The notes below the pieces were generated by a model. The model worked only from the letters and a program-made list of their open reading frames with translations. It did not search any database and was not told the origin of the DNA. From assembly GCA_001972305.1 (NCBI GenBank), contig BDDD01005744.1, positions 1 through 64,000 of the forward strand: DNA of 64,000 nucleotides. The letters run 5' to 3'. Positions 396-63,062 of the stretch are shown in pieces. The translations under genes were made by a program, and so were the position numbers. The stretch is from Cephalotus follicularis (lineage: Eukaryota; Streptophyta; Magnoliopsida; Oxalidales; Cephalotaceae). Every line of letters begins with the position of its first letter. Position 1 is the first letter of the stretch.

Positions 396-975
396 GACGT
401 CGACTTCTTTGTGAAAGGCGTCGATGTCATTTCAGTTAGTAGCCGTTGGAAGTGGTTGAACTAGCCGTTCCAGCTTTCCCGGGTCTTGTTTACTTGAAAA
501 GGCGTCGACTTCTTTTGGAAGGCGTCGATGTCTTTTCTGGGAAATCTCCAGGTCTTGAAGCTTTGAACATCACATCGATCTCTTCTTTGGAGTCGATGCA
601 TTTTCTTGGAATTGCAAGTGGCTATGAAAATGGCGTCGATCTCTATTTAAAGGCCTCGATGTCTTCTGCTTTGACGTCGATGTCTTTTGTTTAAGGATCG
701 ATGTCTTTGATTGCAATTTTCATACAGTAGCTTATGGTTTAGAAAACGACTAAAAGCGTCGATGTTATCTCGGAAGTAGTCGATGTCATCTTTAAAGTAG
801 TCGACGTCTTTTGGAAGTGGTCGATGTCTTTTGGTACGAACGTCGATGCCATTACTGGAAGGACGATGTCTTCTTTGTAGTTAATCCTGTACTAAAGACG
901 TCGATGCTATTTCAAAAGAGTCGACTTTTTTCGTACGGACGTCGATGGTTTTCTTTGATAGTCGACTTCTTTTTC
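396..975. repeat. GTCGA motif cluster, GACATCGACGTC dialect
   Basis: About twenty short, evenly scattered motifs of the form GACGTCGAC, GCGTCGATGTC or AGTCGACTTC, each 8-12 bp and separated by roughly 10-40 bp of unrelated DNA. The cluster lies upstream (on the minus strand) of the TATA box at 292-300, in the U3 part of the LTR. The open frames crossing it are by-products of the repeats. Confidence 0.85.
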
Positions 976-1300
976 TGCAGATGGTATATTGCTTGGATTT
1001 TGAACTTGTAATTCCTTGCACATTAAGTAAATTGGTTAAATCCAAATATGTTATCATCAAAACAAGGATTGAGACTAAATCGTCAACAATGGGCATGACA
1101 TCCACCACTCCTTTAAGCAGTTTCGTCCTCGAAATTAAACATTACTAAAACAAAATAGGGTAACACTCTCTAATGTCCACCTCGCGTTCCCAAGTCCCCG
1201 TATCGAGTCGATGGAACTACCACTGAACCTTTACCATAGGAATGGTTTGGTTCCTCAATACCTGCGTCTTCCAATCCAGAATCTGTACCGGTAACTCTTC

Positions 1301-2649
1301 TTAAGAAAGGTCATCTTGCACAGGAACGGAATCATAATCCAAGACATGTGACGGGTCCCAGATATATCTCCTCAACATAGACACATGGAAGACATCGTGC
1401 ACATTTGATAGTGCAGGAGGTAAAGCAAGCTGATAAGCCACCTCCCCAACTCTCTCTAAGATCTCGAAAGGACCAATGTAGCGCGGGGCTAGCTTGCCCT
1501 TTTTCCCAAATCTCTGCACGCCCTACCATGGTGAAACCTTTAGAAACACAAGATCACCAACGTCGAAGATCAGAGGCTTCCTCTTGATGCTGTCCACATA
1601 GCACTTCTGCCGGCTCTGAGCTGCAAGCAGTTTCTCTCTGATAAACCTGAATTTCTCAGAAGTCTTCTCCACCAGATCCGACCCAAGCAATGGTCGTTCA
1701 CCAACTTCATCCCAACAAACGGGTGATCTACACTTTCTTCCACACAGAGCCTCGTATGGTGCCATACCGATACTAGAATGATAGATGTTATTATAAGAGA
1801 ACTCTATCATAGGAATGTGGTCCTCCCAAGTACCAGCAAAGTCAATAATACAAGTTCGGAGCATATCCTCCAAGGTCTGGATGGTACGCTCCGACTGACC
1901 ATCTGTCTGTGGGTGAAAGGTAGTGCTAAGGTTCAGATTTGTCCCAAAAGCTGTATAAAACCTCTTCCAAAAGTTGGAAGTGAAGATCGAATCTCTGTCA
2001 CAAACTATACTCACAGGAACGCGGTGCAACTTCATGATCTCCTTGATGTATAACCGAGCCAACTTGCTCACAGAATCTATGATTTGGGTAGGAAAAAAGT
2101 GTGCCGACTTCGTGAGCCGATCCACAATGACCCACACTGCATTATGACGGTTTTGAGTCAGAGGAAAACCCGAAACAAAATCCATTGTCACATGCTCCCA
2201 TTTCCACTCTGGAATCGGTAAAGGCTGTAAGAAACCTGCGGGCCTCTGGTGCTCAGCCTCAACAGTCTGACAAGTATAACACTTTGCGACATAGTCAGCA
2301 ATCTCCCTCTTCATACCAGACCACCAATAGTTTCTCTTCAGGTCTTGATACATCTTGGTGCTACAAAGATGTATGCTATACTGGGATTTGTTAGCCCCAT
2401 AAAGCAACTCACCCTTCAGCGCATCATCATTTGGGAGACACACTCGTCCCCAAAAGCTCAATATGCCATCCTTATGCACCTGAAAATCAGACACCGGTCC
2501 CAGGGATTCTCTCGAATCCCTGGCAATTCAGGATCATGCGCTTGAGCATCCTTTATATGATCCAGTAGCGTTGGCTGCGCTCGCATGCTAGCCACAAAAA
2601 CCCCCGGTGACCGATTAAATGGAGACCACCCTTGGAAGTCCTCTAACAT
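1301..2649 (-). pseudogene. Element B integrase and C-terminal domain, broken
   Basis: Integrase inserts the cDNA copy into host DNA. Three open pieces in different frames cover the end of RNase H (2649-2458), the zinc-binding and catalytic core (2494-1523) and the C-terminal barrel-like domain (1519-1301). Visible motifs: CYTCQ of the zinc-binding region, TMDF, VCDRDS and [12 protein letters not shown] for the D-D-E triad, then [17 protein letters not shown]. One zinc-binding His is replaced (YGANKSQYS where element E has HGAHKSTYS). A stop after KVSPW and a frameshift near 2470 separate the parts. The chromodomain-like tail seen in element E is not open here. Not functional. Confidence 0.85.
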
Positions 2650-5075: not shown

Positions 5076-5454
5076 CTGTTGTCACACTCCGCTTCACTAA
5101 CAACGACATACAAGTCATGGCAATCAACATAAATCCAGCTTATGAAAAATACGATTAAATTTAAAACTTTGATTCCAATAACATCTTGCGGAAGCATTTA
5201 GTAATAAGCCGAATAAATAAACCAAATCATGCGTCCCATACCACATGATTCTAAAATTTGATATCATTATGTCATTGTCAAAAGCCCACAACGGAGCGTG
5301 ATCAAAAGTCGGTCAACATCATTAATATATCAATACAGTAATCCAAAATAAAAACATGTCTCAATACATCATTTAACATTATTTCGAGATAATAAAACTC
5401 CATCTCCCCTCTGATTCGGTCGGGCACGGTCGATATCCATATCACTGCATCAAT

Positions 5455-6837
5455 CTGTAATAGTAAGGGGTTAGCCTTTGTCCTCACTCGGCTAAATTAT
5501 AAACGTAATTCAGGGTCAATGATAATGAATATCATGAAATGAATGCATTCGTGATGCAATACATAATATATCACAGTACATATATACATATATGTATATA
5601 TGCCAATATGTGCAACCATGCCAAGTGGCTACAATCATCAAATCATCAATCTTGTCTCAAGGGAGAAACCAAATCAAATCGAATCGGTACGAAGAGCACC
5701 ACCATATCCTGGCCCCGATGTCGTACTCTTACTCCGGCCCCAGACTCCCGGGTCACGAAGCAAGGCAACAAATCAAACTCATGATGCTCGCACTCTGTGT
5801 TCAGTAATCATGGTAACCCGTGTTACTTGCACTAAGTGTTTAGTAACATTGTATTTGGGCGTCCCTAGCCATCTCCTAGCCCCTATGAGAACATCCCGCC
5901 ACCAGCCATCGATGACACTCCGTCACCCAGCCAGTACGGCATCAATCACAATCAACAAATCAATTCAAATCTAATCGTTCCAAGTAATTTATAAACTACT
6001 GGAAATAATAAATTTATTTTAAAACGTATTCCGTCTTTGAAACCATGTTTCAATCCGTCGAAAACATACATTTATCAAAATATACATTTTCATATCAAAT
6101 AATGATTTTTATAAAATCATGTACACATTTCTAAAATGAATAAAACACTTTAGAATCATTCATATTCCAATCAACAATTCATTTCGTATCAAAATGCAGT
6201 GCAAAGATATGCTAAGAATACGGGTCAGTCCCTAACAGTTGGTTGTCTCCTCTTGGCAGTCAGTTGTTTAACCTTCAACAGTCGGCTGCCCTATTTTGGT
6301 AGTCGGCTGCCCCCTTATCAGCCAGCTGTCTCTTCTTGAGAGTCGGCTGCCTCGTAAACAGTACACGTCTTCTCATCGCAACCCATCCCAGCCTCTCCAC
6401 CTCAGCGAATCCGGGTAGTGCGACACGTGGATAGTCGACTGTCACTCAAAACAGTCGGCCGTGCCACCAACAGTCAGCTGCCCTCACTCTGCAGTCGACT
6501 ACACAACCAGCAAGAGGTGTCCTCCATTAAAACGCATGAATAGTCAATTAGCTCATTTGCAGAGTCAGCTGTTTCCCATCGAGTAGTCGGCTGTTCTCAC
6601 TGAACAGTCGACTAGAACCCTCGAACAGTTGGCTGTCCTCCTGGGAAAGTCGGCTGCTTCTACGAGCAGTGTACAAAAACAACAGAAAAAGACATGCAAT
6701 TCTCAACCCAATCCAAACACAACAGAGCATTCATCAACAACAACACATTTCATGCTCATATCACAGTCTATTGCATGCATTTCATCTATGAATGTCCATT
6801 ATAACGGAACTTAAATCACAATTATAAAATCCCCTAC
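5455..6837 (-). other. Candidate LTR intron of element B
   Basis: On the minus strand the block preceding 6837 reads TAAAGAGGTGG...CAAAG|GTAGGGG, a good 5' splice site. Towards the other end are GAGGACAAAGGCTAACCCC with a plant-type branch sequence CTAAC (5474-5470) and TATTACAG|ATTGATGC with AG at 5456-5455. The same blocks recur in LTRs C, D and E. Length about 1.38 kb. Splicing is inferred, not observed. Confidence 0.45.
6233..6670. repeat. GTCGAC motif cluster 2 of B LTR
   Basis: About fifteen motifs (CAGTCGGCTG, AGTCGACTG, CAGTTGGCTG and variants). On the minus strand it lies downstream of the GTAGGGG donor-like site, so inside the proposed LTR intron. Confidence 0.8.
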
Positions 6838-7203
6838 CTTTGAATTCCAAGTTAGGAATTGAAATCCACCTCTTTAAGTCCCGGATCTAAGGCGTTCAAA
6901 GCTCCCAAGTCCATCCAATAACTCCACCAAGCTCGATTCTTCGACTGGTTCGAGCCTCCAAGCCCCCAGTTCAAGTATGGAGCATTTGGGGTTCACTTGT
7001 CTCTCTCTTTTCTCTCCTTTTTCTCCCTTACAATCACTCTATTTCTTTTCTCTCTTTCTCTGTGAAATGCCGAATAATGGAGGAGAAGAAAATGTGTTTT
7101 TATGGAGAAAACGTGTTTCTCTTTCTCTCTGCCGACATAGTCCCCACAATCACTCTCCCTCTGTCATGCCAGGTCTGGCAGCACGTTTTGCTATCTGACC
7201 ACA

Positions 7204-7332
7204 TGGCAGTCGACTGTCTCATCTTGGCAGTCGACTTTCTCTACCAACAGTTTGCAGCCGGCTGTTTCTCCCAGCAGTCGGCTTATTCCACTTAAGGGGG
7301 TCCAGTCGACTGTTCCACCTGACAGTTGGCTG
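7204..7332. repeat. GTCGAC motif cluster 1 of B LTR
   Basis: Six to seven motifs of the type CAGTCGACTG, CAGTCGGCT or CAGCCGGCTG, 15-40 bp apart, close to the 5' end of the LTR on the minus strand and upstream of the probable transcription start. Confidence 0.8.
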
Positions 7333-8144
7333 CCCGCCCTGTTTCAACACTTCTCACAATTCCTTTATCTTTTCATGCAAGCTTTAACATCGCAAAGTGG
7401 GAAAGTCCATAATTCTCATTAATTTTAATACGTAGATTACATCGAGAATTACAACATTACATTAATAAAAATCATGGGCGTTACAAGACCAGTCAATGAT
7501 AGTCCACAAAGGTACCAGACAACAGTCAGTCAGTACGAACAAACGCCGCAAACACCTGGCCCCACGTCGTACTATTACCTCAGTCCCGGATCCGGACAAC
7601 ACGAAGCAAGCCAATAATACAGTGAGTTACCCAGCCAACCCCTGGCTCCTAGGTCAACCCTGCCACTGGCCATCCTTGGCAACCTCCACCACGCAGCTAG
7701 TACGATGCAATCACAATCACAGTCCAATCACAGCATAGGCATAGTGCAATCACAGTACAGTTTAAGAAATTTATAAAAGTAATTACTTGATCAAAATACA
7801 AAAGTTCATTTCAAGTCGTTTAAAAGTTATAAACACTTGAAATCATGCATTTTCATTGTACAGAAAATACTTTAAACAATTCTCAGTATCGGAAGTCATT
7901 TTCCCAGTCATTTCGAGAATATGCATTTGTCGAATATATATTTTTGTACAAAATAATGATTCCTTCAAAATCATGCAGGTATTTCTAGAATAACGAAACA
8001 ATTTTAGAAATCAGTTACAGTCAAACCACAGTCAATTAACAGTTCAATATGCGATGCAAACACATGCTCTAACTGCATCTAAACTTGAATCGGGGACAAC
8101 GTACGTTAGTTAAGTGAAAATATAAGAAACAGTGCGTTAAAGCA

Positions 8145-8460
8145 TCGACGTTTATCATTTAGGCATTGACAGTTATGTCCTCTAAGCGTCGATGCTCAAC
8201 TCCATAGCGTCAGTGCTTTCCAGTGGCATTCATAGCGTCATTAGTCATCTTTGGCGTCGACGCTTCAAGGTAAGGAACCTTGAGCGTCGGCGCTTTTCCA
8301 TTAGTATCGACGCCTTGAGGTAGGACCTCAAGCGTCAATGTTTATCACCCCTATATCCATACTAAGAACCATGGTGTCAATGTTTAACATGCATTCAGTA
8401 ATAATATCGAGTTTTACAGTCCAAAGCATCGACGTTTATAACGTGACCGTCGACGGTTAC
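8145..8460. repeat. GTCGAC motif cluster 2 of C 3' LTR
   Basis: GCGTCGACGCTT-type motifs (AGCGTCGATGC, GGCGTCGACGCTT, CATCGACGTTT) at 20-45 bp spacing. Position matches 22115-22440 in the other LTR. Confidence 0.8.
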
Positions 8461-8690
8461 GTGCCCAGAATTGTTCTCTTTCATCCAACATAATCAGTAG
8501 GATTAAAACTCAATGATCAAGAAAACCAGTTTGATATACATCCAGAAATCGACATGGAATAACAAATTACATATCCAGTATATCAAAGCATCAATCCAGT
8601 AACAAAAATCAGTCCAAAACTGTCATGCAATTCATGCATATCATCATTGAAGAAACATTAAGATTGAACTCAAATTTGCAGGTATAGTTC

Positions 8691-8740
8691 CCCTACCTCT
8701 AGCTTCAAGTTAGAAGTCAAAAGTCCACCACTTTTAGACC
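8691..8740 (-). other. Conserved pre-donor block in C 3' LTR
   Basis: Minus-strand TAAAAGTGGTGGAC...CTAGAG|GTAGGGG, the same block as at 22669-22716, 6831-6880 and 11281-11330. GT would be at 8696-8695. Confidence 0.5.
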
Positions 8741-9194
8741 TCAATCCAGCAGCTTTGAGCTCCCAGGTTCAGTTTGGTTGCTCCCAGTTTGAGCCAGCAA
8801 CTTATGTCCAAGTCTCAGGCTCTCTCTTGGCTCAACAATGGAGGAAGATGCTCTTCCTCTTACATACACTCTCTGATGTCTTATCTCTCTAGCAAGTAAG
8901 TGGTAGAGATTAAGACAATAGCTTTTATGCAGGTGACATCTTTGTTTTGCTCTGCATGCATCCACAGACTTCATTTCCCTCACACCTAGTTGCATGGCGC
9001 ACAAGGTGTCATCTCTCCTTTTCCACTCTTGCATGCACCCTCACATGTCTCCTCTCTTCAGTCCTTTTTACTACTGGCAAGTCAGGGAATCATAATGCAT
9101 GCTCAACACGTCATAAACTGCATGTCAAGGCACGTGAAGAGTGGCATTTCCCCACCTCCATGAGACACGTTTCCTGTTTGTTTAATGGCGTCTG

Positions 9195-9365
9195 ATACTC
9201 GACACAAAGCGTCGACACTTAACTATAAGCGTCAGCGTTATTCGTGCTTTGTTCTATTGGCGTCGACGCTTATCCTTTGCATCGACGTTTATGCGCTTTG
9301 CAATACGTGCGTTTTACCTTGGCGAGGCATCGACGCTTTGGCTTATGGCATCGACGCTTAAGCCC
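9195..9365. repeat. GTCGAC motif cluster 1 of C 3' LTR
   Basis: Motifs AAGCGTCGACACTT, GGCGTCGACGCTT, GCATCGACGTTT and GGCATCGACGCTTA, about 150 bp from the LTR end. Some units are extended palindromes. Confidence 0.8.
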
Positions 9366-9619
9366 AATTTCCTAACTTTTAAATTCAAAGTAACCTTTTA
9401 ACATCGTGCACACTAAAAACAACATTATCAAAAGGGCAATTCCCTATTTCACATTAAATTGTGTCAATTTACAAATGGGAAAATACAACATCACACAAAC
9501 GAAAATCCCAGGTGTTACATCCACCCCTCCTTCAAGGAATTTCATCCTCGAAATTAAAACAATACTAAAACAAATGTGGGTAACGCTCACGCATATCCTC
9601 CTCGCGTTCCCATGTTGCT

Positions 9620-10700: not shown

Positions 10701-10842
10701 TGTAATACCCAGGATTTCCATTTACGTGTAATATTGCTTTTCCAATGTAATATTACACCTTGTGTTAATGAGAATCGTGTTTTCCCTCTTTCCCGTGTTG
10801 AGATGTAGCAAGAAAGTGTGTTATTGTGTGTTTTTGTGCAGG

Positions 10843-10992
10843 GGCAGCCGACTGCCACAGGGAGGCAGCTGACTGGACCCTTGCTGAGGCGTGGCAGCCA
10901 GCTGCTGTGAGGAAGCAGCCGGCTGGTGGGAGTGTCGGCAGAAATAGCCGACTGCCAAGCCAAGGCAGTCGACTGCCATGCGCCAGACAGCC
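10843..10992. repeat. GTCGAC motif cluster 1 of E LTR
   Basis: Motifs CAGCCGACTGCC, CAGCTGACTG, CAGCCGGCTG and CAGTCGACTGCC separated by 10-30 bp, beginning about 140 bp into the LTR. CAGTCGACTG at 10967-10976 is a perfect 10-bp palindrome. Confidence 0.85.
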
Positions 10993-11322
10993 CACGTGCT
11001 GTCTGCCTTAAGTGACAAAAGGGAGAGTGTTTTGGTTTTTATGGCATATGGCAGAGGAGGGGTCGAGTCTCTCTCCTTAAAACACAACCTTCCTCTCTTG
11101 TTTCTCCATCATTCTCTGTGTTTTCCAAGGGTGGTTGTGAGTTTGAGAGTGAAAGCGTGTGTGAGTTTGTGTGGAACAAAGAGTTTGTGAGGAAACCAAA
11201 AGCTTGGAGGCTTGACAGTGGGAGTTCGGACCTGTTGAAGGTGGCTGGACGTGTTGGGGTTGCAAGAGCTTCGGATTTAGACATAAAGAGGTGGATTGCA
11301 ACTCCTAACTTGGAGTTCTAAG

Positions 11323-12627
11323 GTAGGGGGAAGTCATTTTTGCAACATAATTTCAATTGATAATGTTTTGATGAAATAAAAATGCATGTTTATGTTATAT
11401 TGTGAGCTTGGAACGTGTATGTGCATAAATATGTCATTTTGGGTTGTGTTGGGTGTGTGATTGTGGCTTGTTTAGCCGCTGGTTTTTGCCTCTGCTGCAG
11501 AATCCAGCCGACTGCCCACGTTGGGCAGTCGACTACATAGGGGTCCAGCCTACTGTTCTTGAGAGGCCAGCCGACTGCACATGTCTGTGTATTCGAAAAA
11601 TGTCTGCAGAGGATGTGTAGTCAACTGTTGTAGGTCAACGGCCGACTGTGGGGGTGTGGACAGCCGACTGTCCTGAGGGCCAGCCGACTGTCGAGAGTGG
11701 GCAGCCGACTGTCTATGTAGACAGCCGACTGCCTGGTTGTGTAGCCGACTGCCTGGGACTGGCAGCCGACTACTTTGAGGGGAACAACCGACTGCCAGTG
11801 GTGGGCAGCCGACTGTTGGGGGCCTGTTTTGCCCGTGAATATATGTATGCATCATGTATTGTGATATTTTGGTTCGTGAAGCTTTATGAACTGTTTAGGG
11901 TATCGTGATCATTGAGTTTGAACTGTTATAACATATTTCTGGAAGTGCATTGTAGTTAATGAAAAATCATTACTTTACACGAAATTATATGTTTGAGAAA
12001 TATATACTTTCGAACCGTGAAAATGGCTTCCAAAATACCGTGAACTAAGTTTCGTGACATCGAGAATCGTGAACCGTGACATCGTGAAAATGAGTTTGTT
12101 TTCAGGTATTTTGTTTTATAAACTACTTGGAAAACTGTTTTGAGCATCGAGATGATTGTGATTGTGTTTGAGCTTGACTATGATTGTTGATTGTGAATTT
12201 GATTGTGGCCGTACTGGTTGCGTGGCGGAGATGCCAGCGATGACTAGTGGTCTGGTCGACTCAGGGGCCAGGAGTTGGCTGGGTGACTTACTGTATTGTG
12301 ACCTGCTTCGTGCCGTCCGGAGTCGGGGCCGATGTCGGGATGTACGACGTCGGGGCCAGGAGTTGACGACGCTCTTCGTACCCATAGTGTACCGTGAACC
12401 GAGTATTGTGTAGTCCATTGGACTTGTTTGAGACCGTGCATCATGATATTGTGACATTGTGAGAATGTGATATCGTGTTTTGGCATATGCATATCTATAT
12501 TTATACATATGCATCGAGATATAGTATGTACTGCATCATGATTCTTTCATACTTTGTTTGATTGTTATTGTGTTGCTTTTATGACTTTGGCCGAGTGAGG
12601 ACAAAGGCTAACCCCCTATTGTTGCAG
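11323..12627 (+). other. Candidate LTR intron of element E
   Basis: 5' site CTAAG|GTAGGGGG (GT at 11323), preceded by the conserved block from 11281 (ACATAAAGAGGTGGATTG). Near the end, GAGGACAAAGGCTAACCCCC holds CTAAC (12608-12612), about 16 nt before TTGCAG|ATTGATGC (AG at 12626-12627). Length about 1.3 kb. The gag start lies downstream, so removal would shorten the leader without touching gag. Inference from conserved signals only. Confidence 0.5.
11503..11815. repeat. GTCGAC motif cluster 2 of E LTR
   Basis: At least twelve CAGCCGACTG-type units at intervals of about 20-30 bp, densest at 11650-11815. It lies inside the proposed intron. Confidence 0.85.
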
Positions 12628-13004
12628 ATTGATGCTGCGTTTGGACCTTGCCGAGCATGGTTGTTTTGGACCGTGAAGTGACAGAGTTTTTCTGCTTTAA
12701 GTTTTGTTGAGCTGTGTAGCGAACATGTTGTACTTTGGTTTACGCACTAATGTTTTGCTATTGTTGTTGTATCAACTTTGGATCATGCTCTGTTTGCGGG
12801 CTTTTTAACATGTTTTGATAAGGATGTTGTGGGAATCATGCGGTATGGGATGCATGGTTCCATTTGTTTTCAGCTTATATTATATATGCTTCCGCAAGAT
12901 GATGTCTGTTTAAAAGTTTTAAATTTTATCGTTCTCGGTTTAAGCTGGATATCTGTTAAATTGCCATGTTGTATGTTGTTAATGCAAGCGGGGTGTGACA
13001 GTAG

Positions 13005-17703: not shown

Positions 17704-18107
17704 TACCGCCTTCATTTCAGTTCAATAATCATATTACATATATATCTAATATGCAATATAAGAGTTGTTTTCTTTAGAAACATTTGCAATTCAATGATCG
17801 TACATCTCGTAGGAGGAAAACGATATCAATACAATAGTGGTTCTCAATTGGAGAACAAAACAGTAGCAGTGCCTCTATCAAGAGAAAAATAACAGTAGTT
17901 GTATGACAATAAGATTTCCATTAGAAAATCGTTAGAAAATCATTGTTTATGTTTAAACATTAGGTTGGTGAAATCCTCGAACATGTAATCATAACAGGAG
18001 AGATTTCATCCAATAACAGTAAATATAGTTGCATTATATCAATCAAGAGTAATTGCAACCATAATCAATTCAATTGATCAATTTACAAATTTCTACTCCT
18101 ACTGTTC

Positions 18108-18255
18108 TAAAGCGTCGACTGTTACTATATAAGCGTCGACGGTTAATGACTAAGCGTCGACATTACACAGCTTAAGCGTCGACATTCTAAGCCTTATTAT
18201 GCCATTTTCGTATCAAAGCGTCGACATTTATTTGTAAGCGTCGACGCTTCTGGCA
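18108..18255. repeat. GTCGAC motif cluster 2 of LTR F
   Basis: Six AAGCGTCGAC(A/G/T) units at 18111-18247, spaced 20-45 bp, downstream (minus strand) of the GTAGGGG site. Corresponds in position to 49588-49706 of D. Confidence 0.85.
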
Positions 18256-19167
18256 TTCATACGAATTCCAGGAGCAGCTTCAAAACGGGGGATGCACAAA
18301 TTCAATCCAAACTCAATCCAGTTCAGCATGCAATCAAGTATCAACCATCATAACATATTATACATGTTATATGTTCAAAAACATGTCAAAATCCCCTACC
18401 TCAATTGCTATCCCAAGGCCAAATTGGATTGACATGTCACTTTATGTCCAATGTTCCTCACTTGCTTCAATCTTCCGAATTTGAAGAATTAATCTACATA
18501 ATCGCATGATTACGGGTCTTAGGTACGAATCCAGTATGTTAAACTAGTCATATAATCATGACAAACCTCAAGAAATTAAACCAGAAGCTTAATAATTAAC
18601 TTCTAAGTTCAACTTCCTAAACCTTAGCTAATACATCATCCTATCTCTTCTTCCATGCTTAATCTTTCATAATCATGGTAACAGTGGCATTGGTGTTACC
18701 ATTAAGGTATTACATTACTAACGTTCTTAACAATCATCAAGAAATTTTGGATAACTTACCAATCTCAAGTAGTGCTCCAAGTTTTCCCCTTTGAACTTCA
18801 AGTCCCTTCGACATGCAATCCCAGCCACTGTCCAAAGCTTCCTTATTGCACAGTGTTTTCTAGCACTCACATTCAATCTCACAGATTTGATATAAGGTCC
18901 AGTTGGTGTCTTTAATTTCATCAGTTTCCCCCTTCCTTCATTGCACACTTCTCTCTCCTTCACCTGTATGCACTCTTTTCATTGTTGTTTATCTTAATCG
19001 CAGGTTGTGCAGGTGAAGGGACATGCAGGACCCTTAAGTCTGGCACCATCAACAGCTGGCAAGGTCCCTTTTGCATGGCCAACACGTCTATGGACGCATG
19101 CCTCTGTGCCCATTGTGTCAGGTCTGCCATTTCACTCCAACTGACAACTATTTTGCGCCAGAGCCCT

Positions 19168-19335
19168 ACTAAAGCGTCGCCGGTTACCTTTAGGCGTCGG
19201 CGCTTAATGTGCCCTTAGGTGTCGATGCGGGGCGTTTAAAGGTCGACGGTTGGCGCCCAAACTCAGCCCTCAACTGTGCGTTTTTACACATGCCAGGTCT
19301 TAAAGCATCGACGGTGTTACTTGGGCGTCAGCGGT
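19168..19335. repeat. GTCGAC motif cluster 1 of LTR F
   Basis: Diverged units such as AAGCGTCGCCGGTT, GGCGTCGGCGCTTA, GTGTCGATGC and AAGCATCGACGGTG. Corresponds in position to 48572-48693 of D. Confidence 0.7.
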
Positions 19336-19484
19336 TTAATAACAAAATTCAATTCTTTAATTTTCCACTTAATAATTCTATTCCAACTTCATTCATTTAA
19401 AAAGTAATCCCACATAACATCTCAAAAGGTATATTTATTCAATGTCAGATACAAAATACATGAATTGAAATTGCGGTTATTACA

Positions 19485-22440: not shown

Positions 22441-22668
22441 CCCAGAATTGTTGTCTCTTTCGTCCAACATAATCAGTAGGATTAAAACTCAAATATCATG
22501 CAAACCAGTTTGATATACATCCAGAAATCGACATGCAATAACATATTACATATCCAGTATATCAAAGCATCAATCCAGTAACCAAAATCGGTCCAAAACA
22601 GTCATGCAATTCATGCATTTAATCGTTGAACAAACATTAACATTGAACTCAAATTTGCAGGTATAGTT

Positions 22669-48420: not shown

Positions 48421-48571
48421 TGTAATAACCGCAAATTCAATCTGTGTATATTGTACTCTTGATGAATAAAATATGCACTTACTTGAATTTTAATGTCTAA
48501 TTGTTATATGAATTGTGGTTGTGAATTCAATTGAGAAAATAAACTTGAGCAACCAAAGTCAGGCAAAACAG

Positions 48572-48693
48572 CCTACTGTTACAAGGTAACAGTCGACTGC
48601 CTGGTTCATGGGGGAAACAGCCGACTGTCATAGGAGAACAGTCGACTATTTGATGCTAGGAATGGACAGTCGACTGCCAAGTGAATACAGTCG
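48572..48693. repeat. GTCGAC motif cluster 1 of D 5' LTR
   Basis: Six units, including CAGTCGACTGCC, CAGCCGACTG and CAGTCGACTGG, spaced about 20 bp. Repeated in the 3' LTR at 55402-55530, where several units differ by C/T changes. Confidence 0.9.
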
Positions 48694-49450
48694 ACTGGAA
48701 TGGTACAGAACAGGTGTCTGTGCATGCGTGAAACAGAGCAGGGACAGTGGTGACATGTGTCTAACCGTGGCATGCATGAGGGATGCGTGTCACCAACTGC
48801 CTTAACAGGAAAGGGAGGTGCCTTGCATGACCTCTATCCCTCCTGCAACCTACAAACAGAAGATTGAAAAGAGAGAAAGTGAGAAAGAAGTGAACATGTG
48901 AGAGAGAGAAGGAGGAAATTGTGAAGGAAAGTAATGACACAAACTGAGCCTTATATCAGCTGCACATGAGCTGACTGAGTGTTAGGAAACACTGAGGATA
49001 GAGGAGAGCTTGCTAGAGAATTGTTGGAGTTTGCTTTTGGAGATTTTAGGGTGTTCAAGAGGCTTGGAAGCTTTGGATTTTCCTGGTAAGTTCCCAAATC
49101 CGAGCTCACTGCTGATGTTGATAATGTAACTAGGAGAATGTTAGATATCTTCTGTTAACATGATTAAGGTTAGCAATTCCTAGAATTGAACTGGAATTGG
49201 TAAATGATTCAAGAAAAGTGGAGAGATATTGGTAATTTAAAAATGGAGACTTAATGGATTATTAAGAATTTCTGCTAGGAACTTGTAATTGTAATGAGGG
49301 GATTATTGATACTTAATGGTATTAATGCATGTGTCCGTAAACATACATGTTATAGATTAAATTCTGCAAATTGGAAGATTGGTTGGTGAAAAGGCCTTGG
49401 AAACTCAAAGAGAGAGATCAATCACAATTGATCTCGGGATAGCAATTGAG

Positions 49451-50707
49451 GTAGGGGTAATGACATATTTTGGAAGATATGAGTATGCATATCATGTATG
49501 GTTATTTTCTACTTGATTGCATGCACTGATTGGTTTTGTTTTAGGCATTGAAATATACAACCTGCTACTGCCTGCATTTTCTGGGCAAAGCAGTCGACTG
49601 TTCTTCATGGCAGTCGACTACTTAACCTATCCAGTCGACTGTTAAGAGAAAACAGTCGACTACTCAATCAAAACAGCCGACTGTTCTTGAGAACAGCCGA
49701 CTGTCCTGGGTTAAAATTCTTATATAGGTCCTGTTTGGGCCTCAATTTAAATGTAATTAACTGGGCCTCCATATGGATGATTAGAACAATCAATCCTGGC
49801 CTTATATACAATTACATTTCAGAAACTAAACATGTATGCAAGCCTTGTGTGAGTTGCACATGAATGACTATGGTATGCTAATTACCTCATTGAATGTCTT
49901 GAATTGCTATTGTGCTTCACTGTTTGCTGTATATACCACTGACATAATTCGTATATACTGTCTAAGTGTTCTTCAACACTATTATCACTTATCTTCAATG
50001 ATTAAATCAAACTAAGTGCTATAAGCACGAATATGGGTTTTACTAATGGTTTCAAAATGAAAACTTATTGCCAATGATTTACTACTCCTCCTATGTGAGG
50101 TACCTACTGTTTTGTTCTCCAACTGGGAACCACTATTGTATTGACATCGTTTTTCTCCCATGAGATGTACAATCAATGAATTGTTAAATGTTTCTAAAGA
50201 AAACAACTTTTATATTGCATGCTATTGATATATGTAATATTCTACTGAATTGATTGAATTGTTTGTCTATGCTTAATGCCGTTAGTCGAGTGATGGCAGA
50301 GGTCACTGACTACGGTGGGGATCCTAGGTGCCAGGAGTTGCTCGAGTATCACCCAAACCTATTTGCCTTGTAGATCTTATTTGTTAAACTGCCCGCTAAC
50401 GCCAGCAGTAAATGTTACCTGATCTATCATCTTCGGAGTGTAGGGTGATAGATAGGTGTTGCGCAGTCGGTGCTAGGAGGCAGCGACATGTGACACCCAA
50501 ACCACAGTATGAATTGATTGTACCCTTGTGCGGTATTCTTGCATTGTATTGTCTATGGACACTTTGCATGATTTCTTATATATTGGAATACTTAATTATG
50601 TTATTTTCAATATAAAATGTCATACATGTTGCATTCATATATTCCTTAACATGCATTATCTTCCTACTTAGCCAAGTGAGGACAACGGCTAACCCCTACA
50701 ATTTCAG
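49451..50707 (+). other. Candidate LTR intron of element D
   Basis: AGCAATTGAG|GTAGGGG at 49441-49457 and GAGGACAACGGCTAACCCC with CTAAC at 50689-50693, 14 nt before ATTTCAG (50701-50707). An earlier consensus donor GTAAGT at 49086 could begin a first intron, with a small exon ending at 49450; F shows the same pair of sites. Inferred from sequence only. Confidence 0.45.
49588..49706. repeat. GTCGAC motif cluster 2 of D 5' LTR
   Basis: Seven units, CAGTCGACTG, CAGTCGACTAC and CAGCCGACTG, spaced 10-20 bp, inside the proposed intron. Absent from the 3' LTR because of a deletion. Confidence 0.9.
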
Positions 50708-51041
50708 ATTAAGTGAAGACGTTGGAGGGTGCTGCTGAAGCTTTTGGAGAGATTCTTTCTATCTTAAGGTTGTTATTTTATTATGATGTACTGTATTTGT
50801 AACGAACGGTTCATACCCCGTGATGTTGTTGTACTTCCTTATGTAAAAGGATAATTTGATGGATTGTACCTACACATAGTATGGGCTGCGTGCGGATGAC
50901 TTGTATTTTTATTCCGACTTACTGAATGCTTCCGATTATATATGAATTGTTGAATGGAATGCTGGAATATTATATTTATTTATGATATCACCATATATGC
51001 TTATGTGCCTAACGGAATCGAAGGGCCGGGTGTGACAATCA

Positions 51042-55253: not shown

Positions 55254-55547
55254 TGTAATAACCGCATATTCAATCTGTGTATATTGTACTCTTGATGAAT
55301 AAAATATGCACTTACTTGAATTTTAATGTCTAATTGTTATATGAATTGTGGTTGTGAATTCAATTGAGAAAATAAACTTGAGCAACCAAAGTCAGGCAAA
55401 ACAGCCGACTGTTACAGGGTAACAGTCGACTGCCTGGTTCATGGGGGAAACAGCCGACTGTCACAGGGGAACAGCCGACTGTTTGATGCTAGGAATGGAC
55501 AGTCGACTGCCAAGTGAATACAGTCGACTGGAATGGTACAGAACAGG
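55254..55547 (+). repeat. 3' LTR of element D, left part
   Basis: Matches 48421-48714. Motif cluster 1 is at 55402-55530. Interrupted by LTR T at 55548. Confidence 0.92.
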
Positions 55548-58337
55548 TGTAATACCCTGCTTATTCGTATGTGTTTTTACGGACTTTTTATGTGTGTTTT
55601 CGGGCCTTTTAATTTGGTTAATTTTAAAAGTCTGGTTGCCCTTTGTTTTGGGCCTATGTGATTTGGGCTGACTGATACCAGTCCGAATTTTGGGTATGTT
55701 GTGCAATGTTGGGTTTGGGTTTTTAATTAATTTAATCAAAATTTTATTCCTTTTTATTTTAGAATACTTTATTTCGTTTTTATTTTATTTATTTCTTTTC
55801 CTTTTTATTTTTCTTTCCTTTTTCCCTCTTCTTTCCTATTTCTTTCCTCCTTCTCCCGAAGTCACTCCCTCCCACATTACTCTCACACGTCTTCAATCTC
55901 CCTCTGCCTTATTCAGTCGATTTTGTTCCCTCTTCTTCCCTTTTTGAGCAGATTTGTCTTCCTTTTTCCTTTTGTGAGTGCCATTGTATTTTTATATCTT
56001 CCTCCATCTTTTTCTTGCAAGCCACTGCCGAATTCTGCCTTGTGAGCCTATCTAATCTGCTGTGTAATCGTTTCAGTATATTTGAAGAGGTAATCTCAGC
56101 CCTTTAGTTGTTCTTTTGAGTTGAATTCGTTTGGTTTGCTAAGCATGTCCTTGTTTTGGTTTCCTTTGGTTTCCTTTTGTCCCTGTGTGCAGCAGATTGT
56201 GATTGTGTGGTAGTGTTCCTTCTGCTGTTTTCTGTGTCCTTAACATCATTACAGGTTAGTAAATTCGTTCCCTTCTGTGATGAATTTGCTGCAATGTCAT
56301 AATTTCAGTTTTATGCTCTTACTGTCCTGTAGTTTCAATTCTTACGTATATATGTTTAATCATAGTGTTAGTAAGTCTGTTAACATGTTGATATACCTAG
56401 ACTTCTCACAAACTGGTTTTATAACATCTATAAATGATAATGGACAGAATGTGGACATATAAGTATGCATGTTTTCTTGTCCTCCTTTGAAGTTAAGCCA
56501 CTGATTATCTTGTTCAGTGTCAATTTTGTGTTTCCATGTCACCTAGAGGTCATATATGGTCGTATATTTGTGTTCATATGTCTCTGGTTTAACGTGGTAC
56601 TCGTTTGAATCAGTTTCTGTATTGAATTGTCTAGTTTCCTACTGTTCTGTCATCCAGAACAGTCGGTTGTTCCTGTGGACAGTTGGCTGGATTGGATGAG
56701 CAGTCGACTGCCATATGAATAGAGTCGACTGGATCTATGAACCCGTCGACTGCCTGTATTCTAGTCTGAGTAGTCGACTGGCCCTTGTGATTAGTCGACT
56801 GTCAAGCTTCCCCAGTCGGCTGGTGCTCTGTAATAGTCGACTGTTTTGCCCAGAAATGTACTGTTTTCAACCGTTTTGATCCATTTGTTCCTCAACTCGA
56901 TCCGAGTCTTTTCCAAACACTGATATGAGTCTGTTTAATGTTTCTGATGTGTCTTAGACTCTTATACGTATGGCTTTGGTGTCTTTTAGATTATTGTGCT
57001 TCAAGTGAAGTTTGTTTGAATCATCTATCCGTAAGTGCATTGTGAACGCATAAGGTACGAATACTTCGTTCCTTGATACATTCTTATGATCTTATCAAAT
57101 AAAATCAGTTTTGCTTTATGCTAAGCTTCTTCGTTTATGAAATTGATAATGTTTTTAACATGTTTCAGAAATGAAGTTGGTTTGACATTTTTAAATGATT
57201 CCGACTTTATGCATATGATATGAAATGATACGATATGTTACGATCACCTCTTTATAGCGAAATATAAATGAGTTGATGAATTGGGTTATGAAATGTATGT
57301 TATGATACCGTTGTGAGCGGTTTTCTGATCTGTTTTGTGAAAGCATCTTTTATGTGGTTTAAAATTGATTTCGATAAATCGATGTTTTTGCAACAATTGA
57401 ATACTGAGTATTGTACCCACCTATGGGGCGTACCATAGGCACGTCGTAGGCCTGGTACGGGGACGTGACACTTCCGTAGTGGTGCGATTAGTCTACGGCG
57501 TCTCTGAGTGTTATGAATAAATCCCATGAGGTGGATTTATGGATCCACTACGTATAATAGAGGCGTATGAATCGATTCTAGTATATGATATGTGATCTGG
57601 TGAATGATCTGATATGTGATATGTGAGAATTGACTTGTGTAGTGCCGTACACTTCAATTCTAGTGGGCATGTGGAATTAGCGCCTCCCTTGCCAAATTTA
57701 TGTTATGTGATATGTATGTGGCTCAGTATGACTTATAAATTGTGAAATGGCATTTTGAAATGTTTCGTAAATGTTTCGAAAGTTATATGAATTTTATGAA
57801 AGTACAAATGTGATTTACGATTATTTATTTGTTTTAATTACTTAAGATTTCTGTTATGAATCTTACTGTCCTTAAACTTATCATTTACTGTTTTATTTCC
57901 CTTATCCGTACTGAGGTTTGCTCAGCCGCGTTTTTGTTTCCATGCTGCAGGTTATCGGGAGCAGCGGGGGAATGTGTGAACGAGAGATGACCACTCTATG
58001 TCTTTGGATCCCTAGGAGTGTGATCCATATGTTGTTATGTCTAGTGGTCATAAACAATGATTTTTCTGTTTTTATGTTTTAAATTTTAGGACTGAAATAT
58101 GTTTTGGGTTTTTCCGCAAATGATTAATTGCTAAGTTTTTAATGTTTCAGTTTTAATAAGACCGCCACGTTTTTGGCTAATAAAATAAGTAATGCTATGA
58201 TAAGTTATGATATGATCAGATATGTTATGATAAGTTATGTTTTGTGTCCTGTGATGACTCCCGCCGTCCGGGGGTGTTACAGATTTTTGTATTAGAGAAT
58301 TAGGTTTGTTTCCTTAGAAGACCTAACTAGGTTTGAC
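55548..58337 (+). mobile_element. LTR T of another gypsy element, with a scrap of internal sequence
   Basis: TGTAATACCC (55548) to GGGGGTGTTACA (58280), then about 57 bp (TGTATTAGAGAATTAGG...) that looks like a mutated primer site and leader. So this is a 5' LTR whose element was lost rather than a true solo LTR. It is the same family as solo LTR S, in the opposite orientation. It has a CT-rich leader (about 55790-55960) and CATGCTGCAG|GTTATC near 57950, an acceptor-like site. No right-hand target duplication, since the D LTR resumes about 1.5 kb further along. Confidence 0.8.
56655..56845. repeat. GTCGAC motif cluster in LTR T
   Basis: Nine to ten units (CAGTCGGTTG, CAGTCGACTGCC, GAGTCGACTGG, TAGTCGACTGG, CAGTCGGCTGG), spaced about 20 bp, roughly 1.1 kb into the LTR. 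The related solo LTR S has no such cluster. Confidence 0.88.
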
Positions 58338-60210: not shown

Positions 60211-60420
60211 TAGGGTTTTCCAACCCTAGTCGAACTCATTATGAATCATATATGTGGTTATATGTTTTGTATGTGTAGGTTGTGGTTTTGGGTTATGGTT
60301 AGGGTTTCCCAACCTTAGATGAACCCTTGCTTTTCTTTGGAGGAAACCCTAGCAAACCCTAAGGGTTTGGGATGCTAGGGTTCGGGATTGATGGATCAAT
60401 TGTCTAGGGTTTGTGTGTGT
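60211..60420. promoter_or_regulatory. Group of AAACCCTAG/CTAGGGTTT motifs
   Basis: Telo-box-like motifs at about 60211 (CTAGGGTTTTCC), 60220 (CCAACCCTAG), 60299 (TTAGGGTTTCCC), 60344 (AAACCCTAGC), 60354 (AAACCCTAAGGGTTT), 60375 (CTAGGGTTCGGG) and 60402 (CTAGGGTTTG). Such boxes occur in leaders and promoters of plant growth-related genes, but no gene follows here. Confidence 0.5.
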
Positions 60421-62752
60421 TATCCTAGTACCATTTTGCATGATCAAAGTAAGAGTTATGGTTACTGTTGCTAGAAACTTACCCTTACCTTTATGCTTGG
60501 ATGTTTTGTGTGGTTTGATTATATGCTTAATTATGGTTCCTTGGACATGTTGGGACAATTTCCTTCATAGATTAGGGTATCCCATTGCTTGGAGATCAAT
60601 CATTTGGTTAAAAATTAAAATTGATCACCCTAAATACCTATGCCCATAATTGGTTTTTCTTTCGCTCCCCGTTCCCAAGATTAGTAATGATCAGATAATT
60701 TAACCACTGAGGTAAAATTATGGTTGACACATATCCTTAGCCTATACCTCAACGGGGCCAAGTATGACGAGTGATTATAGTACACGCGAACCGACGACTC
60801 AAAAAGTCACGTATTACGGCGGTGTGTAATAAATTATGAGAAATTTAATTGAATTAATTTTTCATCTGGATAATATTGGATATTAGTTTGAAAGCATTTT
60901 AAATAGGTCTAGGACTATTTAGAATGGCTTAACCGAACCCCAGGGGCATTTCGTTAATTTATTAACACCGCCGAAAATAACCGAGACTTTAAAGGGTCCC
61001 TACCCGATAATGATATCTTTATAATATGTTGGACATATTTATCTTGGTGACAATACTAAAATCATATATTGGTTAGGTGGATTTCGTGAGTTGCGTCAAC
61101 ATTAGATGATGACGCATAACATTACCTCACTTAATCTTCTCTAATTCACATGAAGGGACATGTGATATCACTAGAATGAGTAGGACTCATTTAAGTGATT
61201 AGTGGCTAGTTTCTTAGAGAGTATTTGACATGTGGCAATGTTATACATGGTTATGTGACATTTTGCCTTCTAACTCATGCTGAGTGTGACATGTGTCATA
61301 TGAGAAGGATGAGTAAAACTCATCTTACTCAATCCAGCACGCATGGCAGAGATTAATGAGACGTTCTTTCTCTTTTCCCAGCAGTTTTTTATTAGAGAAA
61401 AGGAGAGAAAAAAAATGAGACCAAGAGGGTTTTCGTCTCTCATAGAATTACAAGCTTAGAGCTTGTTTCTCTCTTGAATCCTTCTTTCATTTTCTTCACC
61501 AAGTTTGGAGCTACCTAGGGTGGATTAATATTGACATCCTTAGTCAATTTCAATACTCCCCCTGTGAGCATAGTTGGTTACTTAAAGAAGGAACCAGAAA
61601 ATTGAAGTTATTTGTTAAAGAAGGAGTTGTTGATTTTGAAGCTATTTTCTTTGAGGAAAAGTTTCCAAAATTTCAAAGGTTTGGAGCATAAGGTACTTAC
61701 ATCTTGGAGGTGTTAAAATCTTGGATTAATCAAGGGGAGTCTACCCAAGATTGTACTAGCAAAGAGAAGGAGCCATCACTATTGGTATATCTCTTATTCA
61801 CTCTCTTTGTAACTTGCGCATCAGACTAGCATGCCTTAGCGATGCCAATTTAATTATGAGTTTATGTGGTTTTTCCTCAGACCTGGAATTGTAAGAGTCG
61901 GACCTATTTTAATAGTGGTGTAAAGGGTTTGTCTTCCGCTGAGAAAACAAAAATTTTAAAATTGCACCCCTTAACACCCTTTTGTCCGATTCCAGCAACA
62001 GGCATGAACGTCCATTCCTAACAACCTCATCTTTAATGATATTCAATAAATATATATATTCCACTACCTATGGCTATGGGTTCATTTACCGTATTAATGT
62101 ATGAATTAATAATTGAGTGTCCTAGATTAAAGTTGGAGGAACCAAGTTCTTGATGAGATAAAGATTTGAGAATTGAAACCTCAGTAAGCTTTATTCTTGA
62201 ATCTTCCTGGTCGCAGGATTAAATACTCAAGGCATACTTAATTCAGTAAGACCAGCACGTAGTATGCTAGCTCGTATTCAGGGTGACTAATCTCATATGT
62301 CATCTTGTGGGGACAAGGGCAATACACGTGTGTGAATGAGTTCACTGAAGCTGACTCTCAAGATGGAGTGTCTGTATTGTTAGATTAGGGGTGTTCCTGC
62401 ATGCCACGAGGTGGCTGGTTTTATATCTATTGTACTCCTTGTAAATACAATCTTAATTCCATTTATGTTAAAATTGTGCAATTTCCAGTAGTTATGGCAT
62501 TGCCATATGTATATCCCAAATTATTATTATTGATAAGGTTAATTTATATATTAACCGAATACACATATGATGCCCAGTCACTCAAAGGGTTGTATGTCTT
62601 GCTGGGGAGGATATGAGAACGACTACCTTACTCCCTGTTGACATTTATGTCTCAATTCCTAATTTTGATGATAACACATTTGCAACTAATGAGTTTGTTT
62701 TGTGAAAGATAAGCAAAAAGATATACCAGATACAAATCAGTTCAACCACACA

Positions 62753-63062
62753 AAGCGTCGACTGTCAAATTGAAAGCGTCAGCGCTTCTGGGCTTGTGGT
62801 TTTGAAGGCGTCGAGAATTAATATGAAAGTGTCGACTACAAAAATTTCACAAAGCGCCAGCTCTCAAATTGAAAGTGGCGACAATTTCAGCACAAAGTGT
62901 CAGCAGTTTAGTGTACAGAGTATTCAAAGCGCTAGCAGTTAAAATTCAAAGTCTGAAAATAACGAATGACACAAAGCATCAGCGTTACTAAGAGGCGACA
63001 GTTAATCTCAAACTGGCAGCACATGAAGCGTCGACGCTTATATTAAAACCGGCGACGCTTTG
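62753..63062. repeat. GTCGAC motif cluster in P LTR, GCGTCGACTG/GCGCCAGC variants
   Basis: AAGCGTCGACTGTC, AAGCGTCAGCGCTTC, GGCGTCGAGAATT, AGTGTCGACTAC, AAGCGTCGACGCTTA and ACCGGCGACGCTTTG among others, about fifteen units, upstream of the TATA box. Confidence 0.85.

What the first reader, a model, noticed from the sequence alone, without database searches (positions are those of the whole stretch)
396..63062. GTCGAC palindrome clusters shared by unrelated LTR retrotransposons
Clusters of 4-22 short units built on GTCGAC occur in the LTRs of gypsy families B, C, D/F, E and T and of copia families M, N and P. These belong to two superfamilies whose LTRs otherwise do not match. Units are often perfect palindromes (CAGTCGACTG), spaced irregularly by about 10-45 bp of unrelated DNA, so they are neither tandem repeats nor inherited LTR homology. 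Repeated use of one palindrome next to promoters suggests binding sites for a dimeric host factor, or a target of silencing or nucleosome signals. Sharing across families implies convergent gain, capture or gene conversion.
Basis: partly seen in the sequence, partly recalled or inferred. Interest (0 to 1): 0.88.

Follow-up and report, generated by a model that had tools for sequence, protein, structure and literature searches.

The report
Two-turn-spaced palindrome arrays in plant LTRs
In this plant DNA, unrelated families of jumping genes carry rows of the same short palindrome, set almost exactly two turns of the DNA helix apart in what look like their control regions, which suggests that they have come to use the same DNA-binding factors.

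Summary
GTCGAC occurs 74 times against 6.1 expected, first of 2080 hexamers; 69 of 74 lie in nine LTR families and one linker, 35% of the window. The units are not irregularly spaced: 21 consecutive pairs lie 20-22 bp apart, against 0 in 200 whole-window shuffles, and no other hexamer in any 3-bp spacing band from 12 to 59 bp does as well. The core mostly fits RYCGAC. Its flanks form about three "dialects": CAG-YCGA-CTG, AAGC-GTCGAC-GCTT, AAAGAC-RTCGAC-GCCTT. They cut across superfamilies and LTR homology: copia T and gypsy-type a, b, g2, h share one; copia Z and gypsy-type c, g3 another; homologous LTRs g2 and g3 differ. Spacers of T or Z and the gypsy arrays match only at chance level. The closest known thing is the Sirevirus palindromic "RM" (PMC2829016), there called Sirevirus-specific. 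Most likely these are promoter-upstream arrays for DNA-binding factors of the host, acquired convergently. The factor is unknown, and no genome-wide test was possible because the genome search did not complete.

The parts
375..1089 (-). Es: solo or truncated LTR of copia family E; array 399-966, 17 units, AAAGAC dialect
   Evidence: 79% to E LTRs; units
5080..7485 (-). a5: 5' LTR of gypsy element a; arrays 6281-6612 and 7209-7310, CAG dialect
   Evidence: primer site at 5064 and LTR ends; units
7487..9519 (-). c3: 3' LTR (cut short) of gypsy element c; arrays 8256-8454 and 9211-9355, AAGC dialect
   Evidence: 88.8% to c5
10701..13000 (+). b5: 5' LTR of gypsy element b; arrays 10947-10973 and 11507-11813, CAG dialect, mostly GCCGAC cores
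   Evidence: primer site at 13005
17716..19480 (-). g3: gypsy-type LTR stretch homologous to the g2 LTR; arrays 18114-18245 and 19221-19247, AAGC dialect; ends approximate
   Evidence: 73-88% blocks to g2 LTR, alignment
20857..23470 (-). c5: 5' LTR of gypsy element c; arrays 22121-22431 and 23213-23306, AAGC dialect
   Evidence: primer site at 20842
27726..36564 (-). X: gypsy-type element whose LTRs (27726-30129, 34158-36564) have no array: negative control
   Evidence: 91% LTR pair; 0 GTCGAC in both LTRs
36565..37835 (-). T3: 3' LTR of Sirevirus-like copia element T; array 37240-37667, 14 units, CAG dialect
   Evidence: gag PF14223
39720..39786 (-). Array of 4 CAG-dialect units just upstream of the likely ATG of the env-position ORF of T (38371-39834), as in Sirevirus linker RMs
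   Evidence: ORF hits PF20167
44696..47843 (+). E: internally deleted Sirevirus-like copia element (target duplication ATTAC); arrays 44829-45344 and 46699-47214 upstream of CTATAAATAG at 45441 and 47311
   Evidence: gag 31% to T gag, E 3e-21
48421..51037 (+). g2: 5' LTR of gypsy element g2 (target duplication GACTA); arrays 48592-48695 and 49593-49701, CAG dialect
55254..55547 (+). g2: start of the 3' LTR with array 1 (55404-55528)
   Evidence: 97.7% to 48420-48717
55548..58281 (+). h: gypsy-type LTR inside the g2 3' LTR; array 56703-56841, CAG dialect (orientation and class inferred from its ends)
   Evidence: termini; units
62636..63651 (+). [not shown]
   Evidence: 81% to E over 106 bp of the downstream LTR half

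Best explanation
The clusters are cis-regulatory arrays in the promoter-upstream (U3) part of the LTRs. Each unit is a binding site of about 14-18 bp for a sequence-specific nuclear protein, and units sit two helical turns apart (20-22 bp) so that bound molecules line up on one face of the DNA and can bind cooperatively. At least two, probably three, related specificities exist (the dialects). Gypsy elements and Sirevirus-like copia elements of the same host have each built arrays for the same specificities by local duplication followed by selection on core, flank and spacing while spacers drift. Shown here: enrichment, spacing, dialects, sharing across superfamilies, core conservation in family E, position relative to TATA in copia E and Z. 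Inferred: protein binding, cooperativity, promotion of transcription, and that the factor is the host's. A DREB/CBF-type AP2 protein is a weak candidate for the core, because RYCGAC is a listed DRE/CRT-type element; it does not explain flanks or phasing.
For: GTCGAC 74 vs 6.1, first of 2080 hexamers. 20-22 bp spacing in 21 consecutive pairs vs 0 in 200 whole-window dinucleotide shuffles and at most 1 in 200 local shuffles; top of 2080 hexamers x 46 spacing bands. Dropping E5, c3 and the g2 3' copy: 59 sites, 20 such pairs. RYCGAC in 108 of 115 array cores vs 23 of 148 similar cores outside (partly by construction; leaving out exact GTCGAC on both sides, by subtraction, 49 of 56 vs 18 of 143). 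Flanks, not used to pick units: 62% identical between neighbours vs 37% for spacers, 72 pairs. Dialects, nonredundant sets: CA half-sites 93 of 118 in a, b, g2, h, T (LTR and linker) vs 2 of 106 in c5, g3, Z, E3, Es; GC or AC half-sites 0 of 118 vs 63 of 106 (sums; left out: the b5 'array 3' of 3 chance-like units, 0 CA and 3 GC or AC of 6, and the copies c3, E5, g2_3). T flanks match a, b, g2, h at 0.52-0.57, about as units within a, b or h match each other (0.47-0.52; within g2 and within T 0.66). g2 and g3 LTRs are homologous but differ in dialect. E3 vs Es: core 86/90 identical, the rest outside core and flank 365/450, Fisher p 0.0003; units picked on Es instead give p 0.0006. Arrays end about 100-140 bp before TATA in E and Z.
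Against: No expression, binding or chromatin data. No TATA box could be assigned in the gypsy-type LTRs, so 'U3' there is inferred. Within c (two LTRs of one element) the core is not conserved: 50/60 vs 1684/1852, p 0.07; core CpGs kept 10/15, others 39/52; that fits neutral decay after insertion but gives no support. In E the flanks are not clearly more conserved than the rest (103/120 vs 365/450). Units in an array are not independent (tandem origin), so counts overstate certainty. Helical phase of gaps longer than 22 bp is only weak (26 gaps, R about 0.4, p about 0.02 at 10.2-10.5 bp; none at 20.7 bp, p 0.86). Most deviations from the palindrome fall on one side, so a strictly symmetric dimer site is not proven.
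Confidence: 0.6

Rival explanations
1. The arrays matter as RNA: self-complementary units make hairpins in LTR transcripts that are templates for small RNAs and host silencing, as proposed for maize Sirevirus palindromes (Bousios 2016, seen only as cited in PMC10760457 and PMC5311732).
For: RNA folds of the 11 array stretches tested are more stable than 60 dinucleotide shuffles each (z -2.2 to -7.3); 3 control segments are not (z -0.4 to +1.0). Maize Sirevirus palindromes are small-RNA hotspots (passages).
Against: Any array of palindromes folds well, so this is expected either way. Units have no loop at the centre, unlike the maize motif. In a, b, g2, T and E most deviations are those that break pairing in the sense RNA (GCCGAC 28 vs GTCGGC 2 in a5, b5, g2_5, T3; ATCGAC 21 vs GTCGAT 1 in E3, Es; counted over whole LTRs), not the wobble-tolerant ones; c is the opposite (ATCGAC 1 vs GTCGAT 4 in c5, 1 vs 7 in c3). 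Fixed 20-22 bp spacing is not required.
Confidence: 0.15
2. The arrays are neutral minisatellites: a 21-bp unit expanded by slippage and drifted, with no function.
For: TRF finds 20-21 bp repeats; neighbouring spacers are slightly more alike (37%) than those of different families (27%), so tandem duplication probably did occur.
Against: The same core, flank dialect and spacing recur in LTRs of two superfamilies. Flanks stay at 62% while spacers fall to 37%; unit length stays at 20-22 bp in diverged units. Core changes are rarer than other changes between E3 and Es although the core holds a CpG.
Confidence: 0.1
3. The sharing arose by capture or gene conversion: one LTR's array was copied into another family, for example during nested insertion or template switching.
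For: BLAST matches between copia T or Z and gypsy-type LTRs lie in the arrays or within about 50 bp of their counted units; T and a, b, g2 even share the sense-strand GCCGAC bias. Spacers drift fast, so an old transfer would leave no trace.
Against: Spacer-only similarity of T to a, b, h and both g2 arrays, and of Z to c5, c3 and g3, lies within 200 shuffles (29 to 194 of 200 at or above observed); the true relatives E3/Es score 78 against a maximum of 18 (with 30 shuffles agrees). One copia-copia pair of different dialects, E/T, is slightly above its shuffles (4 of 200).
Confidence: 0.15
4. Anti-silencing target arrays: a transposon- or host-encoded protein binds the clusters to remove DNA methylation, as VANC proteins do on VANDAL elements in Arabidopsis.
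For: VANC targets are dense same-orientation short motifs in tandem arrays of non-coding DNA whose motif changes in concert with the protein (passages of PMC5735166). The dialect difference between g2 and g3 and the one-sided core variants resemble this.
Against: Pfam scans of the 13 window ORFs of 150 aa or more gave gag, protease, RT, RNase H, integrase parts and one Transposase_32 domain; 2 of 13 gave nothing, and no VANC profile was searched by name. VANC motifs are family-specific, these are shared between superfamilies.
Confidence: 0.08

Closest known systems
Sirevirus palindromic repeated motif (RM), Bousios et al. 2010, PMC2829016 (sections 9 and 19 read, other passages seen)
   Same: 8-32 copies of a palindrome per element, in the upper half of the LTR upstream of TATA and, in env-bearing elements, in the linker before ENV. 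Vitis RM is CGGTCGACCG, which contains GTCGAC; Tnd-1 RM is ACAATCGATTGT. Copia T has both locations here.
   Different: That paper calls RMs Sirevirus-specific (its comparison set is Ty1/copia elements), with a CGG-CCG core in all but one; no fixed spacing is reported in what I read. Here one motif, spacing and dialect set occurs in Ty3/gypsy LTRs too.
Maize Sirevirus CACCGGAC palindromes (Bousios 2016, not held; seen only as cited in passages of PMC10760457 and PMC5311732)
   Same: Clusters of palindromes in the LTR cis-region; RNA folding potential.
   Different: Different sequence with a central loop. PMC10760457 reports the same palindrome as the most abundant motif in maize Helitron structured regions, so spread beyond copia has a precedent.
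VANC-binding motif arrays of VANDAL elements, PMC5735166 (passages)
   Same: Dense motif arrays by tandem repeat formation in non-coding DNA, with concerted motif change between relatives.
   Different: VANDAL-encoded binder known; motifs family-specific. That VANDALs are DNA transposons is recalled.
HTLV-1 21-bp repeats (Tax-responsive elements) of the U3 region (recalled, no call)
   Same: LTR enhancer made of about 21-bp repeats around a palindromic factor site.
   Different: Animal retrovirus, three repeats, CREB-type site; only an analogy.

Membership tests
Sirevirus RM | Multi-copy palindrome in the LTR upstream of TATA | tested here: met
   [not shown]
Sirevirus RM | Extra copies upstream of the env-position ORF | tested here: met
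   T: 4 units at 39720-39786 before the likely ATG of ORF 38371-39834; E lacks that region; Z runs off the window; the ORF is not an envelope by Pfam
Sirevirus RM | CGG-CCG core signature | tested here: not met
   Core mostly RYCGAC with CA/TG, GC/GC or AC/GC flanks; the published exception Tnd-1 also lacks CGG-CCG
Sirevirus RM | Carrier is a Sirevirus (Ty1/copia) | tested here: not met
   Copia met for T (PF14223, Pol_BBD, gag_pre-integrs) and E (gag relative of T; no Pfam hit). Not met for a, b, g2: Ty3-type domains (RVP_2, RVT_1, RT_RNaseH, Integrase_H2C2, SH3_Tf2-1) and c, by DNA homology to a and b only (its one ORF scanned had no Pfam hit). g3 and h by LTR features only
Sirevirus (elements T, Z, E) | C-rich integrase signal about 21 bp from the LTR 3' end and multiple PPTs | tested here: inconclusive
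   C-rich stretch present at T and Z LTR ends, absent in E (by eye); repeated GGGGGAG-type tracts before the 3' LTR in E and T (by eye); no RT tree was made
Chromovirus, Tekay-like (gypsy a, b, c, g2) | Ty3 gag-pol with integrase C-terminal chromodomain | tested here: inconclusive
   Ty3 domains met for a, b, g2. Pfam found no chromodomain in the 236-aa piece of b, but an 85% identical Cephalotus protein is named 'Chromo domain-containing protein'; lineage name recalled
DRE/CRT (CBF/DREB) element | RYCGAC consensus | tested here: met
   108 of 115 array cores; RYCGAC listed as CBFHV, a DRE/CRT motif, in passages of PMC7570135
DRE/CRT (CBF/DREB) element | Bound by a CBF/DREB protein and responsive to cold or drought | not testable with these tools
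   needs binding and expression data
VANC target array | Encoded VANC-type binder and hypomethylation | not testable with these tools
   no methylome; no such domain named by Pfam in the 13 ORFs scanned

The most novel reading that the evidence does not exclude
A shared cis-code across retrotransposon superfamilies. One host has two or three DNA-binding specificities that read palindromes set two helical turns apart, and both gypsy elements and copia Sireviruses have converged on them and switched between them in concert within an LTR (g2 vs g3), as expected of an arms race with a host activator, silencer or anti-silencing oligomer.
Probability: 0.35. Interest if true: 0.85.

Novelty: new variant of a known kind. 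Interest (0 to 1): 0.66.

Why it matters
Sirevirus palindromic repeats were described in 2010 without a known binder, and I saw none named in the later papers opened. If the same phased palindromes, in the same flank dialects, occur in gypsy elements of the same genome, the binder is likely a host (or common) factor. The dialects then give clean bait sequences and a matched homologous LTR pair (g2/g3) with which to find it. It would also suggest that retrotransposons of two superfamilies compete for one regulatory input, and that helical phasing is part of plant LTR promoter grammar.

Tried and rejected
Literature: 10 searches used. No title or abstract start that was listed ties GTCGAC arrays to gypsy LTRs; (GTCGAC, LTR retrotransposon, palindrom) found 0 papers. 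But several lists were capped (20 of 1,192, 25 of 121, 20 of 86, 12 of 17, 10 of 119), only open-licence papers are held, and Bousios 2016 is not. One search failed on a slash in a term; one search was a reworded form. I opened none of the papers.

Relatives: a pattern scan of viral contigs for three phased GTCGAC gave 101 stretches (80 printed; all 101 in the box). tblastn with three window proteins found no retroelement in them; 96 of 101 have GC of 0.48 or more, and 21 bp is seven codons, so I dropped them as mostly chance in coding DNA. Four (L087, L092, L034, L101) were looked at: 7-, 9- or 21-bp simple repeats or scattered sites, unlike the window's arrays. A protein scan of viral contigs found no relative. 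The genome search on the window's own genome was sent 11 times and never answered, so the genome-wide control is missing.

Rejected ideas: insertion hot spot for integrases (passages of PMC6911290: only a weak preference for palindromes at insertion sites, and not arrays); plain LTR homology between superfamilies (matches confined to the arrays and their edges; copia E and T share a 39-bp inverted match outside them); chance composition. Helical phase of longer gaps is only weak; the best period of the 30 relaxed gaps was 8.0 bp (searched range 8-30), not 10.4, so I claim only the 20-22 bp neighbour spacing. In one search three planned pairs were skipped because of wrong labels; T/b and a/b were run, while c array 1 against g3 was not.

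Full report
What is there. The window is plant DNA made largely of nested LTR retrotransposons. Of the 120 listed relatives of one gypsy piece, the most identical is a Cephalotus follicularis protein (85% over 87%; third by score), and short gag stretches match Cephalotus at 74-97%, so the host may be near Oxalidales; that is an inference. I identified gypsy elements a, b, c, g2 and X, gypsy-type LTRs h, g3 and y, copia elements T and E, a copia-type LTR Z and an E-type LTR Es, from self-comparison, ends, primer sites and domains. Element g2 has a GACTA target duplication at both ends and E has ATTAC. E's remaining ORF has no Pfam hit but is a relative of T's gag (31%, E 3e-21). Z has no coding part in the window that I tested.

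Enrichment. GTCGAC occurs 74 times against 6.1 expected and 6.2 in shuffles (maximum 14 in 200), first of 2080 hexamers by excess. Of the 74, 69 fall in the array-bearing LTRs and the T linker, 35% of the window. In single LTRs the top word is one of the unit's words (AGTCGA, AGTCGG, CGTCGA, CAGTCG, ATCGAC, CATCGA or CGACGC) in all 12 array LTRs examined, GTCGAC itself ranking 3 to 25; not so in X5, X3 or y. Of 12 internal or other segments, 11 have 0-1 sites and the T internal region has 3.

Spacing. Consecutive exact sites are 20 (6), 21 (13) or 22 (2) bp apart, 21 pairs in all, with none at 23-27 bp. Shuffling the window gave 0 such pairs in 200 trials; shuffling in 500-bp blocks gave at most 1. 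Among 2080 hexamers and 46 bands of 3 bp between 12 and 59 bp, GTCGAC at 20-22 is the highest count, and the 25 highest rows are all words from the same units. Without the duplicate LTR copies, 59 sites give 20 such pairs. With a relaxed core the pair distances are 20, 42 and 6 at 20, 21 and 22 bp, with secondary peaks at 40-43 and 60-64 bp. Two turns of B-DNA is about 21 bp. Longer gaps show only weak 10.2-10.5 bp phasing (26 gaps, p about 0.02) and no 20.7 bp phasing (p 0.86).

Unit and dialects. Array cores are GTCGAC 59, GCCGAC 23, ATCGAC 20 and 13 others out of 115; 108 fit RYCGAC on a strand, against 23 of 148 similar cores outside array LTRs (partly by construction because exact sites were selected). 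Beyond the core three flank types stand out: CAG-YCGA-CTG (a, b, g2, h and copia T), AAGC-GTCGAC-GCTT (c, g3 and copia Z) and AAAGAC-RTCGAC-GCCTT (copia E, Es). In one search, counting the dinucleotide next to the core on both sides and leaving out the copies E5, c3, g2_3 and the three chance-like b5 units at LTR +1555 to +1654, CA occurs in 93 of 118 half-sites of the first group and 2 of 106 of the rest; GC or AC in 0 of 118 and 63 of 106. The T linker array has 8 of 8 CA. Mean flank identity of T with a, b, g2 and h is 0.52-0.57, but with c and g3 0.14-0.18; Z with c5 and c3 is 0.53-0.55 and with g3 0.45.

Dialect crosses homology. LTRs g2 and g3 align from near their starts to about position 1800, with 73-88% blocks, and carry arrays at the same two places; g2 units are CAG type (19 of 22 half-sites), g3 units AAGC type (8 of 16 GC, 1 CA). 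The g3 array 1 contributes only 2 counted units (1 of 4 half-sites GC), so the difference there rests on few sites plus inspection of the alignment. The LTRs of a, b, c, g2 and g3 all have a first array at about +160 to +310 and a second at about +800 to +1370.

Selection or drift. Neighbouring units share 62% of flank but 37% of spacer bases (72 pairs); across families spacers are at 27%, near chance. Between E3 and Es the core is 86/90 identical, the flanks 103/120 and the rest 365/450 (core vs rest p 0.0003); core CpGs are kept 22/23, others 8/11. Between the two LTRs of c, which decay together after one insertion, the core is not spared (50/60 vs 1684/1852, p 0.07). This is what selection between source elements and neutral decay after insertion would give, but it rests on one family pair each.

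Origin of sharing. All copia-gypsy BLAST matches lie in the arrays or within about 50 bp of counted units. Spacer-only comparison of T with a, b, h and both g2 arrays, and of Z with c5, c3 and g3, stays within 200 shuffles (29 to 194 of 200 at or above observed); E3 against Es, a true relative, scores 78 against a maximum of 18. T against E, both copia but of different dialect, is slightly high (4 of 200). Recent capture between superfamilies is therefore unlikely for the pairs tested; old capture cannot be excluded, since spacers drift fast even inside an array.

Mechanism. In E and Z the array ends about 100-140 bp upstream of a TATAAATA box, the place of an upstream promoter array; in T an array also lies just before the env-position ORF. 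Palindromic consensus, two-turn spacing and dialects point to cooperative binding by sequence-specific proteins. One-sided deviation (GCCGAC 28 vs GTCGGC 2 in a5, b5, g2_5 and T3 together; ATCGAC 21 vs GTCGAT 1 in E3 and Es; c opposite) argues that the site is not read as a perfectly symmetric dimer site, and in most families breaks rather than keeps pairing in the sense RNA. The 11 array stretches folded are still more stable than shuffles (z -2.2 to -7.3; three controls near 0), so a small-RNA role stays open.

Known or new. Bousios et al. 2010 described palindromic repeated motifs in 13 Sireviruses, in the LTR upstream of TATA and in the linker before ENV, one with a GTCGAC centre (Vitis, CGGTCGACCG), and called them Sirevirus-specific. 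T fits that description except for the CGG-CCG core. New here, as far as the sections and passages I read go, are the gypsy carriers, the common dialects across superfamilies, and the 20-22 bp rule. PMC10760457 notes the maize palindrome also in Helitrons, so wider spread has a precedent. Motif arrays that change in concert are known for VANDAL elements and their VANC proteins. RYCGAC is a listed DRE/CRT-type element, a lead for the binder only.

Noticed in passing
44696-47843: Copia element E has lost the 3' part of its 5' LTR through much of its coding region, yet its two LTR stretches are 99.5% identical over 850 bp and it has an ATTAC target duplication: apparently a young, internally deleted element.
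   Followed up: partly
38371-39834 (-): ORF at the env position of copia T matches Pfam PF20167 (Transposase_32, putative plant transposon protein), not an envelope.
   Followed up: partly
47506-47633: 43-bp tandem repeat, 2.9 copies at 92%, in the 3' part of the E LTR; unrelated to the GTCGAC units.
   Followed up: no
27726-36564: Gypsy-type element X has 2.4-kb LTRs 91% alike and no GTCGAC array: some families of the same genome do without it.
   Followed up: partly
55548-58281: LTR h sits inside the g2 3' LTR, but about 1.5 kb of g2 LTR (counterpart of 48718-50221) is missing beside it, so the insertion came with a deletion or a later recombination.
   Followed up: no
window, LTRs a5, b5, g2_5, T3, E3, Es: Core variants are strongly one-sided relative to element orientation, which a symmetric palindrome would not predict; copia T and gypsy a, b, g2 share the same side, c has the other.
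   Followed up: partly
L092:3705-3766 and L087:6936-7366: Two IMG/VR stretches hold dense GTCGAC in 7-bp repeats (L092) or in 9-bp and 20-bp steps (L087); they look unrelated to the window's arrays and their nature was not worked out.
   Followed up: partly
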